From Desulfobacterales bacterium (GTDB lineage Bacteria; Desulfobacterota; UBA8473): a stretch of DNA of 60,266 nt. Both the position numbers and the translations under genes were made by a program. Below, one piece after another: positions 24,868-30,624 of the stretch. The stretch spans positions 1-60,266 of the forward strand of contig JACQWO010000077.1 of the NCBI GenBank assembly GCA_016209225.1, in the 5' to 3' direction. The notes beneath the pieces were generated by a model. The model did not search any database and was not told where the DNA came from. It was given only the letters and a program-made list of their open reading frames with translations. Numbering within the stretch: the first letter of the stretch is position 1; every line of letters begins with the position of its first letter.

Positions 24868-25665
24868 TCACACCATGCTGTATCCCCCGCTTACACTCAG
24901 AATCTGACCAGTTATATGACCTGCTGCTTCATTTGAAGCGAGAAAGACCACAGCGCTGGCTATATCCTGAGGTTTTCCAACCTTGCGAAGGGGGTATGCC
25001 TTTGCAACCTTCTCTAGCTGCTCAGGAGTAAAGAACTCTGCTGCCTTTTTCCACATGCTTTTTTCTCCAATCTCGCCGGCTTCTGTTGGCACAGTTACTC
25101 CAGGACATACCACATTGGCCCTTATCCCAAAACGACCATTTTCCCTAGCTATCGTTTTGATAAAGCTGTTAACGGCACCTTTTACGCCTCCATATACTGC
25201 CTCTTTATATTCACCCTGACGGCTGGCATCGGAACTGATGCTGACAATTGCCCCGCTCTTCCTTCCTATCATATAATCAAGGGCAGTCTTAGTGCAGTTC
25301 AGTACCCCTACGTAGTTGATGGTTATCACTTTGTTCCAAAAATCTGGTGTAGTTTCGGTAAAAAGCATCATTTGATCCCATCCTACATTGTTTACCAAAA
25401 CATCTATCTGTCCAAACTCATCATTGGCCTTTTTGAACATAGCCTGTACATTGTCCAGACTTGTTACGTCACATTTAGTTGTAATGGTTTTTCCTCCGGC
25501 TTTAAAGGCATTTGCTTCTTTAGCAACGTTTTCAGCCTGTGCTGTGTCTATATCCCCGATCATCACATTTGCGCCCTCTTTAGCAAAGGTCAAGGATATG
25601 GCTCTGCCAATATTAGAGCCTCCTCCAGTAACTACCACGGTTTTTCCTTTATAACCTAAGTCCAT
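24868..25665 (-). CDS. Short-chain dehydrogenase, BadH-like
   Basis: A 265-residue NAD(P)-dependent oxidoreductase. The cofactor motif TGGGSNIG is at 14-21, NNVGW follows near residue 91, the catalytic Ser is in SISSDAS and the catalytic pair is YGGVK. The segments NYVGVLNCTKTALDYM and EAVYGGVKGAVNSFIKTIARE resemble 2-hydroxycyclohexanecarbonyl-CoA dehydrogenase (BadH) of anaerobic aromatic and alicyclic acid degradation, but 3-oxoacyl-ACP reductases are close relatives. It stands alone, with no pathway partners visible. The start has GGAGGGTTT upstream. Confidence 0.85.
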   Translation of the reverse strand: MDLGYKGKTVVVTGGGSNIGRAISLTFAKEGANVMIGDIDTAQAENVAKEANAFKAGGKTITTKCDVTSLDNVQAMFKKANDEFGQIDVLVNNVGWDQMMLFTETTPDFWNKVITINYVGVLNCTKTALDYMIGRKSGAIVSISSDASRQGEYKEAVYGGVKGAVNSFIKTIARENGRFGIRANVVCPGVTVPTEAGEIGEKSMWKKAAEFFTPEQLEKVAKAYPLRKVGKPQDIASAVVFLASNEAAGHITGQILSVSGGYSMV

Positions 25666-26219
25666 AGTAAACCCTCCTTTAGTATGATTGTTATAGTGAA
25701 TGCCTTATAAACTTTTTACCAAGATAAAGGATGTGTGTCAACAGAAATTATCAGCGGATTTTCAAAATTACTACCTTTCCGTTGCTATTATCCTTTACCT
25801 TTTAACTTGCATTTTTTTAAATAAATAGAGTATAAAAGGCAGAAAGTACTCTGGATTTTGAGTTTTGTGAAAGGGTTCTTGGGACGGAAGGATTTTGGAG
25901 AGAGATTGAGAGGAAGGTAGTCAACGCCCGAAGAGAGGAAGACTCATAAAATAGTTTGTATTTTCTCTCTCATATAAGTTCCTGTCTACGATATACTGAT
26001 TCTGTATAATATGATATTATAGATCATTTACGGAAGTCAAGGAGATAATCCTCTGAAATTATTTGTTTATTTGGTTAAAATACAGTATGGTTAAACATAA
26101 ATCGAAGGAATAAACCGATCCAGTATAATCATTGTTAGCGAATAAAAACGATAATACATAAATACCCCTACCCCTGATGATATTAAGCCCATAATGTAAC
26201 CTACAAGAAGAGATGAAAA
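25666..26219. other. AT-rich gap before the cassette array
   Basis: No gene is supported. A short plus frame around 25830-25947 reads TLDFEFCERVLGTEGFW and has no start codon; it may be a remnant. The sequence GTTAAAC at 26090 fits the attC 3' core consensus but has no folded partner upstream. The promoter of the dehydrogenase gene must lie at its left end. Confidence 0.35.
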
Positions 26220-26594
26220 ATGGAGATTAGAACCCTCATCATCGGTTTTCTCTTTGGTATTATTGGGGCTTTTTTTGGCTCCTGGTTTAACTATCTCTTT
26301 AGCGAACGCAGAAGGCAGAGAGAAGAATTTAATAATACTGCAACCGCCTTGCTTGCTGAGATTGATTCCGTCATCGAAAATCGTAGTCGAATGAACCACC
26401 CCACTGGGAGAGATTTTGCCAAAGACCCTCTCCGAAAAATGGGCGTTGCTACCTACCATGCTTTCAAAGTTACCCTCAACAAAACTGATGCAGCTTATAT
26501 AGAAGAAGCATATCAGAATTGCGACAAGGATTATCCTAAGACAATAAATCTTACGGTGTTTAGAGATGCAATAATAAAAATTCATGATCGCTAA
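26220..26594 (+). CDS. Small membrane-anchored cassette protein, unknown
   Basis: A 124-residue protein: one N-terminal membrane helix (IIGFLFGIIGAFFGSWFNYL) followed by a basic stretch and a cytoplasmic helical domain. It resembles the single-span hypothetical proteins common in integron cassettes, but no named family is recognised. The stop codon TAA lies inside the 5' core of attC site 1 (CGCTAAC), a typical arrangement for cassette genes. GAAGAGATG provides a possible ribosome site. It would be the first recognisable cassette. Confidence 0.6.
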   Translation: MEIRTLIIGFLFGIIGAFFGSWFNYLFSERRRQREEFNNTATALLAEIDSVIENRSRMNHPTGRDFAKDPLRKMGVATYHAFKVTLNKTDAAYIEEAYQNCDKDYPKTINLTVFRDAIIKIHDR

Positions 26595-26646
26595 CCTATT
26601 AATCCAGCCGATGCTGAAAAGCGCACGGCTGATTACGGTGTTGGGC
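26589..26646 (+). other. Integron attC-like recombination site 1
   Basis: Fifty-eight bases from CGCTAAC to the 3' core GTTGGGC, which fits GTTRRRY exactly. Between them TAATCCAGCCGATGC faces GCACGGCTGATTA. The stem is complete except for one extra C and one extra A on the top strand, which become unpaired G and T on the bottom strand, the pattern that integrases recognise. The 5' core is only a partial match (AAC conserved). Confidence 0.8.
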
Positions 26647-26673
26647 CAATAATATGTTAAAGGAGCGACATTT

Positions 26674-28296
26674 GTGAAAAAAACACTAAGCGTTAACAAT
26701 GTGTCCTTGTATAGAGAAATAGCCAGCAATCTAGTAAATCCACTTGAAATAATAAGGGAGGCAATAAGCAACTCTCATGACGCTCAAGCAAAGGAAATTT
26801 CTATAGACATTAGTAGAAATGAAGACAATGACGTGGAAATTCGCATTTCAGACGACGGAACCGGAATGGATCAAGAAGGTTTTCAGCGTTTCTTTAATCT
26901 TGGAGACTCCCTAAAAAAGGAAAACCTAATCGGTCAAAAAGGTCTTGGGACAAAGACATATTTCCGAAGCAAAATGATCCATGTTGAGTCGCAAACCAAT
27001 AATGAGCGATTTCGAGCAGTTATGGAATTCCCTTGGGATACACTTTCTAAGAATCAATTACCCGAATATGAATTGACAATTGTTGAATACAAGCCAGGAA
27101 TGAATGGCACCATAATTACAATTTCAGGTTATGCCACTGATATTCCTGAGAAGTATTTTAACTTTGATACGTTAAAAGACTACATTTTATGGTTTTCCGC
27201 GGCGGGGTCATTCAAGACAAAGTTTGCTGACATTATTTCAATCCACAAATATGTCCAAAACATGCACGTGGCCCCCAAGATTTTCTTAGTAGATAGAATT
27301 CAGGGAAAAACAGAGGAATTCTCAGGGGCACATAAATTTTCACCCCCATGCGAAAATCCAATTCTTCCTCAACATTCAGAGGATTTACGCGCTGATCTGT
27401 ATTGTAAACATTTTGGACCATTTCATAGAGAAACAACCATTCATGGTAAATATGTTTCATTTCAACTTTACGGGACAGTCTCAGGTATAAAATGCCGGCA
27501 AAGCATTTGTTATCTTGGTTATTATGAGCAGTTAAAATCACGTTTTGGTTTATATTTGTGTAAGGATTTTGTCCCTGTCGTCAATAGACGTGAATTATTG
27601 GCTGACGACCAGTATCATCACTATCATTTACTATTGAACAGCCAAATTTTCGATTTAACTGCCGACAGAAACAACATTTCAAATGATAATAGTCCGGAAG
27701 CAAAGTGGATATTCGAAGAATTTAGAACCCTCTTTAATTCTCAAATTAAAATGATTGCTGAAAGTACATATTGGGTTATCAGAAAAGAAGAAGAAGCAAT
27801 TATTGCCATAAAGAAGCGTATAAAGGAAGTAAAAGGCCGAATAGAAAATTATCAAGGTTATCCAAATCTTGATGCTGAAGGTCTGCCTATCGTAAAAATA
27901 CCTAATAACGAAGCCCAAGTTGCGGTGTTATTTGCCTCAATGCTTACAAAATATGGTGAGGGTAATTTCCTAAATCTAAAAATTGGGCAGTATTCTGGGA
28001 CTTCTTCAACAGATTTAATTTGCGAAAACGTGGATGGTAACCCTTGTCTTGTTGAATTCGAATTTAGAATAAGCAACCTTTTTACGCATGGACATCCATA
28101 TGAAACATTTGAATATGTAATATGTTGGGAGGTTGACCTTGAAATTAATCAAACAAAAAAGACACCAGAGGGTGTTACTTTAAAATTAGTAAAAGATGGG
28201 TCAAATTGGCTCCTGAAATATGGACCGACTCGGACAATTCCAATCATTGAATTGAAAAGTAAACTTGATGAGTTGAGAACTCATACGGCCAAATAG
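26674..28296 (+). CDS. GHKL ATPase with nuclease-like C-terminal domain (cassette gene)
   Basis: A 540-residue protein. The N-terminal Hsp90/MutL-type ATPase has the N box REAISNSHDA (Glu29, Asn33, Asp36), G1 DDGTGM at 60-65 and G2 GQKGLGTKTY at 87-96. A long middle domain follows. The C-terminal region from about 445 shows STDLIC, VEFEFRISN and HGHPYETFEYVICWEVD. This resembles a PD-(D/E)XK-type nuclease core (Asp447, Glu461) but with ExE in place of ExK, so activity is not certain. ATPase-nuclease fusions are common in anti-phage defence. The start is GTG with AAAGGAG upstream. It fills one cassette between attC sites 1 and 2. Confidence 0.75.
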   Translation: MKKTLSVNNVSLYREIASNLVNPLEIIREAISNSHDAQAKEISIDISRNEDNDVEIRISDDGTGMDQEGFQRFFNLGDSLKKENLIGQKGLGTKTYFRSKMIHVESQTNNERFRAVMEFPWDTLSKNQLPEYELTIVEYKPGMNGTIITISGYATDIPEKYFNFDTLKDYILWFSAAGSFKTKFADIISIHKYVQNMHVAPKIFLVDRIQGKTEEFSGAHKFSPPCENPILPQHSEDLRADLYCKHFGPFHRETTIHGKYVSFQLYGTVSGIKCRQSICYLGYYEQLKSRFGLYLCKDFVPVVNRRELLADDQYHHYHLLLNSQIFDLTADRNNISNDNSPEAKWIFEEFRTLFNSQIKMIAESTYWVIRKEEEAIIAIKKRIKEVKGRIENYQGYPNLDAEGLPIVKIPNNEAQVAVLFASMLTKYGEGNFLNLKIGQYSGTSSTDLICENVDGNPCLVEFEFRISNLFTHGHPYETFEYVICWEVDLEINQTKKTPEGVTLKLVKDGSNWLLKYGPTRTIPIIELKSKLDELRTHTAK

Positions 28297-28301
28297 GGAT
28301 G

Positions 28302-28363
28302 GCCCAACCAGTCACTCCAGCGGACGGGCAAAAAGCTGCCCGCCGCTGACTTCTACGTTATGC
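28302..28363 (+). other. Integron attC-like recombination site 2
   Basis: Sixty-two bases. The 5' core GCCCAAC fits RYYYAAC and the 3' core GTTATGC fits GTTRRRY except for one base. The arms CAGCGG-A-CGGGCA and TGCCCG-CCGCTG form a perfect stem with one unpaired A. It begins 5 bp after the ATPase stop. Confidence 0.85.
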
Positions 28364-28403
28364 CTATGCAATGAAAATATATTTCCAAAACATAAAAACA
28401 TGG

Positions 28404-28417
28404 TATACTACCGTATA
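28404..28417 (+). promoter_or_regulatory. Putative operator palindrome of the toxin-antitoxin pair
   Basis: TATAC and GTATA face each other around four bases, about 27 bp before the antitoxin ATG. Such palindromes are the usual binding sites for self-regulating antitoxins. A matching -10-like TATACT overlaps it. Confidence 0.4.
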
Positions 28418-28443
28418 AAATCACATATTTAGGGAGGTTGGAT

Positions 28444-28671
28444 ATGATAAAGACTGATGAACTTTTTGCTGAAGCGGTTTCGCTACCATTGGATATTCGG
28501 ACGCAACTTGTAGACAAGCTTCTACAAAGCCTCCATCCAATCCAAAAAGAGATTGATGAGTTGTGGGCAGAAGAGGCGGAAAAGAGGGTTGAAGAAATAA
28601 GAAGCGGCAAAGTAGTTACAATACCGGGTGAAGAAGTATTCAAAAAAATCCGTAAAAGGTTAGGCTCTTGA
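28444..28671 (+). CDS. Addiction-module antitoxin, RelB/Unstab_antitox type
   Basis: Seventy-five residues of the putative addiction module component family. Typical stretches are ALSLPLDIR-like SLPLDIRTQLVDKLLQSL at the N terminus and IDELWAEEAEKRVEEIRSGKV in the middle. It should bind and neutralise the toxin encoded next and repress the operon. The ATG at 28444 follows an AGGGAGG ribosome site by 6 bp; an upstream TTG is less likely. It overlaps the toxin gene by 4 bp. Confidence 0.88.
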   Translation: MIKTDELFAEAVSLPLDIRTQLVDKLLQSLHPIQKEIDELWAEEAEKRVEEIRSGKVVTIPGEEVFKKIRKRLGS

Positions 28672-28967
28672 AATATTCTTTCCATGCCGAAGCTGAAAAG
28701 GAACTTAACGATGCAATAGATTATTATAACAAGTGCCAAAACGGCCTTGGGGTTGAATTTGTAGAAGAAGTATACGCCGCAATCCAGAATATTCTTTCAT
28801 TCCCTCACGCATGGGCTCCGCTTTCCAAAAACACCAGAAGATGTCTGACCAATCGTTTTCCCTATGGGGTCATTTACCAAATTACACATGGTGAAATATT
28901 TATAGTCGCTGTGATGCAACTTAACAGAGAACCCGGATATTGGAAAGACAGGGAAAATAAGGCATAA
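28668..28967 (+). CDS. RelE/ParE superfamily toxin
   Basis: Ninety-nine residues with the family pattern: FHAEAEKELNDAIDYYN at the N terminus, LGVEFVEEVYAAI in the middle and RRCLTNRFPYGVIYQITHGEIFIVAVMQLNREPGYW at the end. RelE members cut mRNA on the ribosome and ParE members poison gyrase; the type cannot be decided. It starts with TTG inside the antitoxin stop, which is translational coupling. Its TAA lies in the attC site 3 core GCATAAC. TA pairs are common integron cassettes that stabilise the array. Confidence 0.87.
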   Translation: MKYSFHAEAEKELNDAIDYYNKCQNGLGVEFVEEVYAAIQNILSFPHAWAPLSKNTRRCLTNRFPYGVIYQITHGEIFIVAVMQLNREPGYWKDRENKA

Positions 28968-29033
28968 CCAATCACTGCACTGGATTTTTACTCCGCTCCG
29001 CTTCGTAAAAACCAGTGAGTTCAGGCGTTGAGC
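28962..29033 (+). other. Integron attC-like recombination site 3
   Basis: Seventy-two bases from GCATAAC to GTTGAGC (fits GTTRRRY exactly). The arms CACTGG-A-TTTTTAC and GTAAAAA-CCAGTG pair completely with one unpaired A, and a further unpaired G lies in ACTGCACTGG versus CCAGTGAGT. The loop is 13 bases. Confidence 0.82.
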
Positions 29034-29186
29034 CTGTAGGAAAAGTCAATCTCGCGCGAAATTGGTAAGTTGTAAGAAAATGAGACCTCTCAGAATGCTC
29101 TATGTACGATGATCTCATGATGTGGAAGGGTGAGACCCCGAAAACCACCCCTTAATCGCAGTAAGGGGCTTTTTCTACAGGCTCGT
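29030..29186. other. Inverted-repeat-bounded segment with terminator, possible small RNA
   Basis: GAGCCTGTAGGAAAAG on the left faces CTTTTTCTACAGGCTC on the right. Between them are the complementary pieces ATGAGA and TCTCAT and a terminator at 29148-29175. It contains no ORF of note. The right end runs into GTTAGAC, which fits the attC core GTTRRRY. It could be a cassette holding an RNA gene, or leader RNA of the next gene. Confidence 0.4.
29148..29175 (+). terminator. Rho-independent terminator
   Basis: CCCCTTA pairs with TAAGGGG over a 7-base loop and is followed by CTTTTTC. It lies 40 bp before the NifX-like gene and would end transcripts entering from the cassette array. Confidence 0.7.
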
Positions 29187-29215: not shown

Positions 29216-29590
29216 ATGAAATTATGTTTTCCGGTTGAATTAGAAAATGGATTAGATAGTGAAGTGTTCGGTCATTTTGGTTCGGCTCCAATCTTTGTCG
29301 TTTTTGATACAGAAACAAAATCAATTGACACAATTAACAATCAAGACTTAGGCCATGCGCACGGTATGTGCAGCCCCTTAAAAGCTTTAGATGGAAAAAT
29401 GGTTGATGTTGTCGTTGTTGGCGGCATTGGTGCAGGTGCTATCAATAAATTAAATGGAATGGGAATCAAAGTTTATAGAGCTTCAAAAGGCACAGTTCGA
29501 GACAATATCGGATTATTTGAAAGTAACACAATGTCCGAAATTACTGTAGAGCATGCCTGTAGTGGTCATGCTGGTGGATGTGTACACTAA
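29216..29590 (+). CDS. NifX/NafY-type dinitrogenase iron-molybdenum cofactor family protein
   Basis: A 124-residue protein of the NifX/NifB-C-terminal type. The core reads MKLCFPVELENGLDSEVFGHFGSAP, FVVFDTETKS and DVVVVGGIGAGAINKL. It ends in a His/Cys tail HACSGHAGGC that may bind a metal cluster. Outside nitrogen fixation such proteins carry Fe-S or molybdenum clusters of unknown purpose and are abundant in anaerobes. No nif genes are near. AAAAAGGAGAGAAAAGC precedes the start. Confidence 0.9.
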   Translation: MKLCFPVELENGLDSEVFGHFGSAPIFVVFDTETKSIDTINNQDLGHAHGMCSPLKALDGKMVDVVVVGGIGAGAINKLNGMGIKVYRASKGTVRDNIGLFESNTMSEITVEHACSGHAGGCVH

Positions 29591-29994
29591 TAAAGAAAGG
29601 GTTGGGGACGTTTCTCAAATTTTATTTGTTTAACAAATAGATACGCACTATTTTTTAGTTTTTATCTTTTTTATTTACCTTCACTCACTTCTTCTAAGTT
29701 TTTTCCAAAACCTCTTCGTCCCAATGATTCCTCACACCATGAGGCTAAGTTTTTAATTTGGATTTCAGCCATTTTGGGAACTCAATCCAGGGGATGGTCA
29801 GGGTGTCTGAGCGGTACGCTTTCATGATAACCTGATATTAGCTGGATTTATTGATTGTTTTTTATCTTTAGTAATGGTAACATTTTTTCGTATTCTAAAA
29901 GACAATACCATTAAATTAACCAGTCTTTTTGCTTCCTTTGGGATCTTCATAGTTAACATTTATCCGAAGTCTACAGAAAGGAGAAATAGGAATA
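29591..29994. other. AT-rich gap after the NifX-like gene
   Basis: A minus-strand open frame of 33 codons (29671-29772) starts MAEIQIKNLASWCEESLGR, without a ribosome site; it may be a remnant of a longer protein and is not called. The rest is AT-rich and shows no hairpin of note. GAAAGGAGAAAT at the right end is the ribosome site of the next gene. Confidence 0.3.
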
Positions 29995-30624
29995 ATGAGG
30001 ATTGTTCCAGCTATTTTGACTGATAAATTAGAAGACTTTCAGAATATGGTAGATATTGCAAAGGGGTTCACCGATTATGTTCAGGTTGACTTTATGGATG
30101 GGGTTTTTGTCCCTTCAAAGAGTATATCTTTGGATGCTTTAATGGGAGTGAAAATCCCTTTAGACATGGAGGCCCATTTAATGGTGAAAGACCCTAATGG
30201 TTATCTAGCCTCTCTTAAATCTATAGGGGCTAAAAAGGTCATATTGCATTTTGAGGCCGATCCAGATCCAGAAAAGGTAATCTCTAATATCAGGAATTTG
30301 GGTATGGAAGCAGGTTTGGCTATTAACCCCAAGACCGCTATTTCAGAGTTTCAGTCTTTAGTGTCCCATGTTGATTCTTTTTTGTTTCTATCAGTGGACC
30401 CCGGTTTTTATGGCAGCCCTTTCATACCTAGGGTGCTTGATGAGGTAAGGCGTTTTCGTGCCCAATTTCCGTCTGCCTTTATTGGGATAGATGGTGGGAT
30501 TAGCCTTGATAATATAAAGAAGGTAAAGGCAGCAGGGGTGGACTATGCATGTGTTGGCAGTCGTATCTTTCTGCAGCCGGATCCAAAGGAAAGCTATGAG
30601 GCGTTTCTAAGTAGTTCATCCTGA
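29995..30624 (+). CDS. Ribulose-phosphate 3-epimerase family protein
   Basis: A 209-residue TIM-barrel protein of the Rpe type. Catalytic regions are visible: VDFMDGVFVP with the metal-binding Asp, EAHLMVKDP with His, ILHFEAD with His, SVDPGFYGSPFIP, and GIDGGIS. Rpe interconverts ribulose and xylulose 5-phosphate; the first His of the iHvDvMDG motif is Gln here (YVQVDFMDG), so the metal site is altered and a different sugar epimerase is possible. The stop codon is inside the left end of a dispersed element. Confidence 0.8.
   Translation: MRIVPAILTDKLEDFQNMVDIAKGFTDYVQVDFMDGVFVPSKSISLDALMGVKIPLDMEAHLMVKDPNGYLASLKSIGAKKVILHFEADPDPEKVISNIRNLGMEAGLAINPKTAISEFQSLVSHVDSFLFLSVDPGFYGSPFIPRVLDEVRRFRAQFPSAFIGIDGGISLDNIKKVKAAGVDYACVGSRIFLQPDPKESYEAFLSSSS

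What the first reader, a model, noticed from the sequence alone, without database searches (positions are those of the whole stretch)
26589..29033. A three-site integron cassette array without integrase
Three sites (26589-26646, 28302-28363, 28962-29033) end in GTTGGGC, GTTATGC and GTTGAGC, begin with AAC-type cores, and fold into stems with one or two unpaired bases on the same strand. Two cassette genes have their stop codon inside the core. Seen directly: cores, stems, unpaired bases. Known: this is the bottom-strand recognition pattern of integron integrases, and clusters of attC sites lacking an integrase occur on chromosomes. Inference: this is such a cluster, either a detached piece or the tail of a larger integron.
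Basis: partly seen in the sequence, partly recalled or inferred. Interest (0 to 1): 0.75.

Follow-up and report, generated by a model that had tools for sequence, protein, structure and literature searches.

The report
Integron array that lost its integrase
This is a real integron (a bacterial gene-capture platform) of three, probably four, captured genes that still has its docking site but has lost its own integrase gene, in a genome that carries about 60 such capture sites and at least one intact integrase elsewhere.

Summary
The three attC sites are real. A covariance model built only from clinical class 1 attC sites finds exactly these three in the 60-kb window (E 3e-6, 7e-6, 7e-4) and nothing else up to E = 10. 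Each cassette's two ends match as integrase insertion requires (3 of 3 exact).

(1) The array has its attI. Window 25960-26136 differs at 2 of 177 bases from the attI beside an intI on contig C63, ends exactly at the G^TT where cassette 1 starts, and keeps 14 bases of the intI 5' end. So this is the head of an integron that lost intI, not a detached tail or off-target insertion.
(2) The right core of site 3 is the edge of a 155-bp inverted-repeat element. The original core is GTTAGAC at 29185; a fourth gene (29216-29590) is probably a cassette without detectable attC.
(3) The genome has about 60 attC sites, one intact IntI and several broken or contig-split ones.

The locus is empty in a sister genus and filled differently in congeners. 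It is a CALIN-type element, a known kind. Less expected: about a third of the attC sites carry one of two unrelated repeats at the R' GTT.

The parts
24868..25665 (-). left host flank: short-chain dehydrogenase gene
   Evidence: Pfam adh_short; conserved next to the epimerase gene in relatives
25866..25964 (+). fragment of a repeat also present in congeners G002:C27 and G003:C152, between host flank and attI
   Evidence: 86-91% matches; identity of the repeat not established
25960..26136 (+). attI site, ending at G^TT 26134-26136
   Evidence: 2 differences in 177 bases from the attI beside intI on C63; about ten genus copies all alike up to GTT and different after it
25960..25973 (-). remnant of the intI 5' end (ATGAGAGAGAAAAT)
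   Evidence: identical to the start of the C63 intI reading frame
26135..26640 (+). cassette 1 (from TT of the attI core to G of the site 1 R' core)
   Evidence: GTTAGCG 26134 is the exact reverse complement of R'' CGCTAAC 26589
26220..26594 (+). cassette 1 ORF, 124 aa, no family match; stop inside R''
26589..26646 (+). attC site 1
   Evidence: R2 24.4 bits, R3 31.9 bits
26641..28357 (+). cassette 2
   Evidence: GTTGGGC 26640 matches R'' GCCCAAC 28302
26674..28296 (+). cassette 2 ORF, 540 aa, GHKL-type (HATPase_c_3) ATPase
   Evidence: Pfam PF13589 1.3e-15; relative in only one other of 395 phylum genomes
28302..28363 (+). attC site 2
   Evidence: R2 32.1 bits
28358..29029 (+). cassette 3, up to the insertion in its attC
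   Evidence: GTTATGC 28357 matches R'' GCATAAC 28962
28438..28671 (+). cassette 3 antitoxin gene (TIGR02574 / Unstab_antitox)
28668..28967 (+). cassette 3 toxin gene (ParE family); stop inside R''
   Evidence: PF05016 8.5e-9
28962..29033 (+). attC site 3 as reported; its last four bases belong to the inserted element
   Evidence: R2 33.5 bits; element edge at 29030
29030..29184 (.). 155-bp MITE-like element with 16-bp terminal inverted repeats, flanked by GTT on both sides
   Evidence: arms 29030-29045 and 29169-29184, 94% complementary; same end repeated in this genome
29185..29191 (+). probable original R' core of site 3, GTTAGAC
   Evidence: sequence directly after the element; same arrangement at other copies
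29216..29590 (+). probable cassette 4 ORF, 124 aa, NifX-like (Nitro_FeMo-Co); no attC found after it
   Evidence: PF02579 4e-20; no attC hit
29995..30624 (+). right host flank: ribulose-phosphate 3-epimerase gene; similarity to relatives resumes at 29951

Best explanation
This is a small chromosomal integron that has lost its integrase gene. It keeps the docking site (attI), three cassettes with canonical attC sites, and probably a fourth cassette whose attC is gone. Shown: attC structure, exact cassette boundaries, attI with the first bases of intI, no intI on the contig, and an intact intI plus many more attC sites elsewhere in the same genome. Inferred: cassettes were inserted one by one at attI by an IntI acting on the folded bottom strand of attC; a later deletion or rearrangement removed intI up to its start codon; the array may still be a substrate for an integrase supplied from elsewhere in the genome.
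For: Three covariance hits with a model independent of this genome and no other hit in 60 kb; R''/R' matching 3 of 3 here and 13 of 16 in other arrays of the genome against 1.3 by shuffling; attI with 2 differences in 177 bases from the C63 attI and conservation in about ten copies ending at GTT; intI 5' end retained; near-identical attC sites joined to other genes on other contigs; insert absent at the same locus in a sister genus and replaced by other genes in congeners; intact IntI on C19 with the integron-specific insert region.
Against: Recombination was not tested. The genome is a draft of 95 contigs, so a lost linkage can be misread, although this contig runs through both host flanks. 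Fold energies alone are only moderate. The fourth cassette rests on a core and a gene start, with no attC. No relative with intI at this locus was found, so loss on the spot is inferred.
Confidence: 0.9

Rival explanations
1. Off-target insertion: cassettes were placed at a non-integron genomic site (attG) by an integrase acting from elsewhere, so there never was an intI here.
For: IntI genes exist elsewhere in the genome; such insertion is described (Loot et al. 2024, as cited in PMC12901181) and is one of three proposed CALIN origins (PMC8618304).
Against: The array starts at a full-length attI with 14 bases of intI, 99% identical to the attI next to intI on C63.
Confidence: 0.03
2. The attI-headed array was moved here as a unit without intI, by an unknown route, rather than losing intI on the spot.
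For: Several copies (window, C44:65.7k, G001:C120) lose similarity within about 11-14 bases of the intI start although their flanks are unrelated, and a repeat fragment abuts the window copy.
Against: No common right end or transposase was found; two copies (C2, G003:C219) break slightly further into intI; few cases.
Confidence: 0.25
3. Chance hairpins next to ordinary genes; no integron.
For: Fold z-scores are moderate.
Against: Covariance hits only here in 60 kb, exact core matching 3 of 3, attI, covariation across 23 sites against shuffles.
Confidence: 0.01

Closest known systems
CALIN (cluster of attC sites lacking an integron-integrase; IntegronFinder, PMC9024848)
   Same: At least two attC sites in tandem, same orientation, no intI nearby; chromosomal
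   Different: Keeps a complete attI and a trace of intI, so its origin can be read; most CALINs are defined by attC sites alone
Sedentary chromosomal integron
   Same: attI, canonical attC sites, cassettes with mostly unknown genes and a toxin-antitoxin pair; near-identical attC sites on different genes
   Different: Short, no intI here, and one of many small arrays scattered over the genome rather than one long array
Class 1 integron attC and cassettes
   Same: attC structure recognised by a model made from class 1 sites; same boundary rule
   Different: No resistance genes, not on a mobile element as far as seen, no intI1
IS1111-attC group and IS1182-family IS1272 (for the element in site 3)
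   Same: IS1111-attC elements target attC (PMC11187229, citing Tetu and Holmes 2008 and Post and Hall 2009); IS1272 targets inverted repeats (PMC5678879)
   Different: The transposase here is a DDE_Tnp_1_6 (IS1182-type), not the DEDD type; ends are terminal and GTT is present on both sides; IS1272 replaces its target hairpin whereas here the attC hairpin stays

Membership tests
attC site | Covariance-model match for R''-L''-L'-R' structure | tested here: met
   All three sites, model independent of this genome
attC site | Unpaired bases at the conserved positions on the folded bottom strand | tested here: met
   Single unpaired bases in sites 1 and 3 at two positions, site 2 at one; aligned to the model positions
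attC site | Recombined by an integron integrase | not testable with these tools
   needs a recombination assay
gene cassette | Start core and end R'' complementary | tested here: met
   3 of 3
gene cassette (gene 4, 29216-29590) | attC at the 3' end | tested here: not met
   No hit; read as probable cassette remnant only
integron | attI next to the first cassette | tested here: met
   25960-26136
integron (complete) | intI adjacent to attI | tested here: not met
   No TIGR02249 match on the contig; only 14 bases of the 5' end remain
CALIN | Two or more attC sites without intI nearby | tested here: met
off-target (attG) insertion | Left boundary is a non-integron sequence | tested here: not met
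   Left boundary is attI
IS1182-type MITE (element 29030-29184) | Terminal repeats shared with a copy that carries an IS1182-type transposase | tested here: met
   Ends shared with the 922-bp C44 copy, which holds a broken DDE_Tnp_1_6
IS1182-type MITE (element 29030-29184) | Insertion at attC shown against an orthologous empty site | not tested
   No orthologous empty attC was looked at; the GTT duplication is inferred from the two junctions and from other copies

The most novel reading that the evidence does not exclude
In this genus the integron works as a dispersed system: several attI-headed arrays without their own intI share one or a few integrases acting from elsewhere, and attC sites double as landing pads for at least two repeat families (an IS1182-type IS with its MITEs, and a hairpin-rich REP-like repeat) that enter at the GTT of the R' box, next to the integrase cleavage point.
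Probability: 0.4. Interest if true: 0.65.

Novelty: new member of a known kind. Interest (0 to 1): 0.48.

Why it matters
CALINs are common but their origin is usually undecidable; here a retained attI with the first bases of intI argues for intI loss or rearrangement rather than off-target insertion. The genome also offers a natural case for asking whether intI-less arrays stay active through an integrase encoded elsewhere, and why about one in three attC sites has been hit at the same three bases by unrelated repeats.

Tried and rejected
Model R1 was discarded because I mistyped its structure (R box shifted by one column); R2 replaced it. No attC was found for the fourth gene. Promoter scan of attI: 3 matches against 1.8 expected, so no promoter is claimed. 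PADLOC and NCBIfam gave no specific assignment for cassette 2 beyond a GHKL ATPase. The off-target (attG) reading was dropped once attI was found. I searched the paper library for IS1182-type elements or REP sequences in attC and found no description; the IS1111-attC paper of 2008 is not held.

Full report
Check of the observation. I took 13 attC sites from class 1 integrons on plasmids, aligned them without gaps and built covariance model R2 with the attC stem structure. In the 60,266-base window R2 finds exactly three matches up to E = 10, all on the + strand: 28962-29033 (33.5 bits, E 3e-6), 28302-28363 (32.1, 6.8e-6) and 26589-26646 (24.4, 6.7e-4). Filters off over 4.2 kb give the same three and nothing else above 6.2 bits. 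The E-values are rough because calibration was short, but the other 57 kb act as a control. Bottom strands fold at -9.9, -14.9 and -10.6 kcal/mol with single unpaired bases; this alone is only modestly better than shuffles, and the top strands are similar.

The cassette signature. From established knowledge of integrons, the core at a cassette's start and the R'' at its end belong to one site in the excised circle, so they tend to be reverse complements. Here all three agree exactly: GTTAGCG 26134 with CGCTAAC 26589; GTTGGGC 26640 with GCCCAAC 28302; GTTATGC 28357 with GCATAAC 28962. The same test on 16 consecutive pairs in other arrays of the genome gives 13 exact matches against 1.3 by shuffling. 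Parts of two attC sites recur on other contigs while the cassette bodies do not: 49 bases of site 1, 96% on C91; site 3, 91-92% on C85 and C63. Across 23 attC sites (class 1, native and the window's) the stems show more covariation than shuffled or slid controls.

The attI. Window 25960-26136 matches C63:26313-26489 with 2 differences in 177 bases. On C63 that stretch lies between an intI reading frame (start L145:12477, + strand) and attC sites on the other strand, the normal divergent layout of an integron. About ten further copies in this genus, some beside intI (for example G001:C234), are alike up to GTT and mostly diverge after it. That places the recombination point at 26134/26135. The window copy includes ATGAGAGAGAAAAT, the first 14 bases of the C63 intI frame, and then diverges into a repeat fragment also seen in G002 and G003. 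So intI is missing almost from its start. Of the three CALIN origins listed in PMC8618304, off-target insertion is made very unlikely; loss of intI or a rearrangement remain.

The fourth gene and the inserted element. GTTGAGC at 29027 is GTT plus the start of a 155-bp element (29030-29184) with 16-bp inverted ends, GAGCCTGTAGGAAAAG and CTTTTTCTACAGGCTC. It is followed by GTTAGAC, a likely ribosome site and the ORF 29216-29590. The best reading is cassette 3 attC with its R' split by an element flanked by GTT on both sides, then cassette 4, a NifX-like gene whose attC is not found. Host similarity resumes at 29951.

The locus in relatives. In two genomes of a sister genus the dehydrogenase and epimerase genes are close neighbours: their matches end 348 bases apart in L141 and 164 in L143. 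In congener G004 a P-type ATPase and a transporter gene fill the gap, and in G001 an oxidoreductase gene adjoins the epimerase. The 4-kb insert was found only in this genome among those with the locus. The cassette 2 protein has a relative in only one other of 395 genomes of the phylum. Relatives of the cassette 3 toxin-antitoxin pair, 26-41% identical, lie near attC sites or attI on other contigs.

The rest of the genome. G000 (3.1 Mb, 95 contigs, 98.5% complete) has one intact IntI on C19 (480 aa, with an N-terminal extension), a truncated one on C63 (286 aa), C-terminal parts at the ends of C86 and C13, and fragments. Several other hits (C11, C81, about 320-335 aa) are Xer-type in length and score and are not counted. 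Model R3, which includes native sites, lists 61 matches up to E = 10. Of 57 outside the window that I read, most look like attC, and many have a gene start downstream; the weakest may be chance. The organism is a Deltaproteobacteria-type draft genome: its SelA protein is 94% identical to that of Deltaproteobacteria bacterium CG_4_8_14_3_um_filter_43_13.

Repeats in attC. Of those 57 sites, 30 have an intact R', 7 carry the IS1182-type end directly after GTT, 11 carry a different hairpin-rich repeat at the same place, and 9 are otherwise altered or poorly aligned. With window site 3 that makes 19 of 60 in all. A search for the IS end alone, without GTT, gives 44 matches with up to 2 mismatches against 8 for the reversed control. 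Of the 18 with at most one mismatch, 13 are flanked by GTT or AAC in the listing I read, C64 by ATT and the C73 pair by AAT; I read the remaining ones as GTT or AAC too. A further search that required GTT found 48 matches in five congeners and none in three sister-genus genomes; because it required GTT it cannot be used to judge the flank. Not every left end has an attC hit by model. A 922-bp copy on C44 carries a broken DDE_Tnp_1_6 transposase, and G003 holds a long open transposase frame of the same kind. I call it IS1182-type from the Pfam match and from memory of that family, not from a family-level test. IS1272 is known to target inverted repeats (PMC5678879).

How it most likely works. 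Inferred, not tested: IntI captures circular cassettes at attI through the folded bottom strand of attC; the array grew at attI; then intI was lost. An IntI elsewhere in the genome could still act on it. The inserted element begins GAGC, so its insertion leaves GTTGAGC, which still fits the GTTRRRY core; it may therefore spare attC function.

Verdict. A real integron array, without intI but with attI: a new member of a known kind. The repeats in attC are the part most worth following.

Noticed in passing
window 29030-29184; G000:C44:59879-60800 (L148 4880-5801); G003:C149 (L230): An element family with 16-bp ends GARYCTGTAGRAAAAG, 80-922 bp, usually flanked by GTT on both sides, often directly after an attC and before the next cassette; the longest copy read in G000 holds a broken DDE_Tnp_1_6 (IS1182-type) transposase.
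   Followed up: partly
L270, L279, L284, L285, L291, L295 and others; sequences: A second, unrelated repeat with strong hairpins (GTT then CTCCCCTCGCTTCGCTCGGGGAGAATGCGGCAGTTGAGCAG...) sits at the same GTT of 11 attC sites; in five of the six copies printed in full it ends ...GCCGCA before TT and the next cassette (the C64 copy is only the first hairpin). It could be a REP-like element; its spread outside attC was not searched.
   Followed up: partly
L148 10708-10883 (C44), L182 231-408 (C2), L186 1685-1861 (G003:C219), L185 6409-6566 (G001:C120): Other attI copies without an intact intI beside them; in C44 and G001:C120, as in the window, similarity stops about 11-14 bases into intI although the flanks are unrelated.
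   Followed up: partly
L139:7340-10677; L140:4043-7037: The space between the dehydrogenase and epimerase genes holds different genes in each congener, so it may be an insertion hotspot.
   Followed up: partly
L001:997-2439 (C19 IntI); L145:12477-13337 (C63 IntI): The IntI proteins carry an N-terminal extension of about 110-160 residues with a second SAM-like stretch before the usual integrase body.
   Followed up: no
window 26674-28296: The 540-aa GHKL ATPase of cassette 2 has distant relatives on plasmids of haloarchaea and Caballeronia (27-34% identity) and only one in 395 phylum genomes; function unknown.
   Followed up: no
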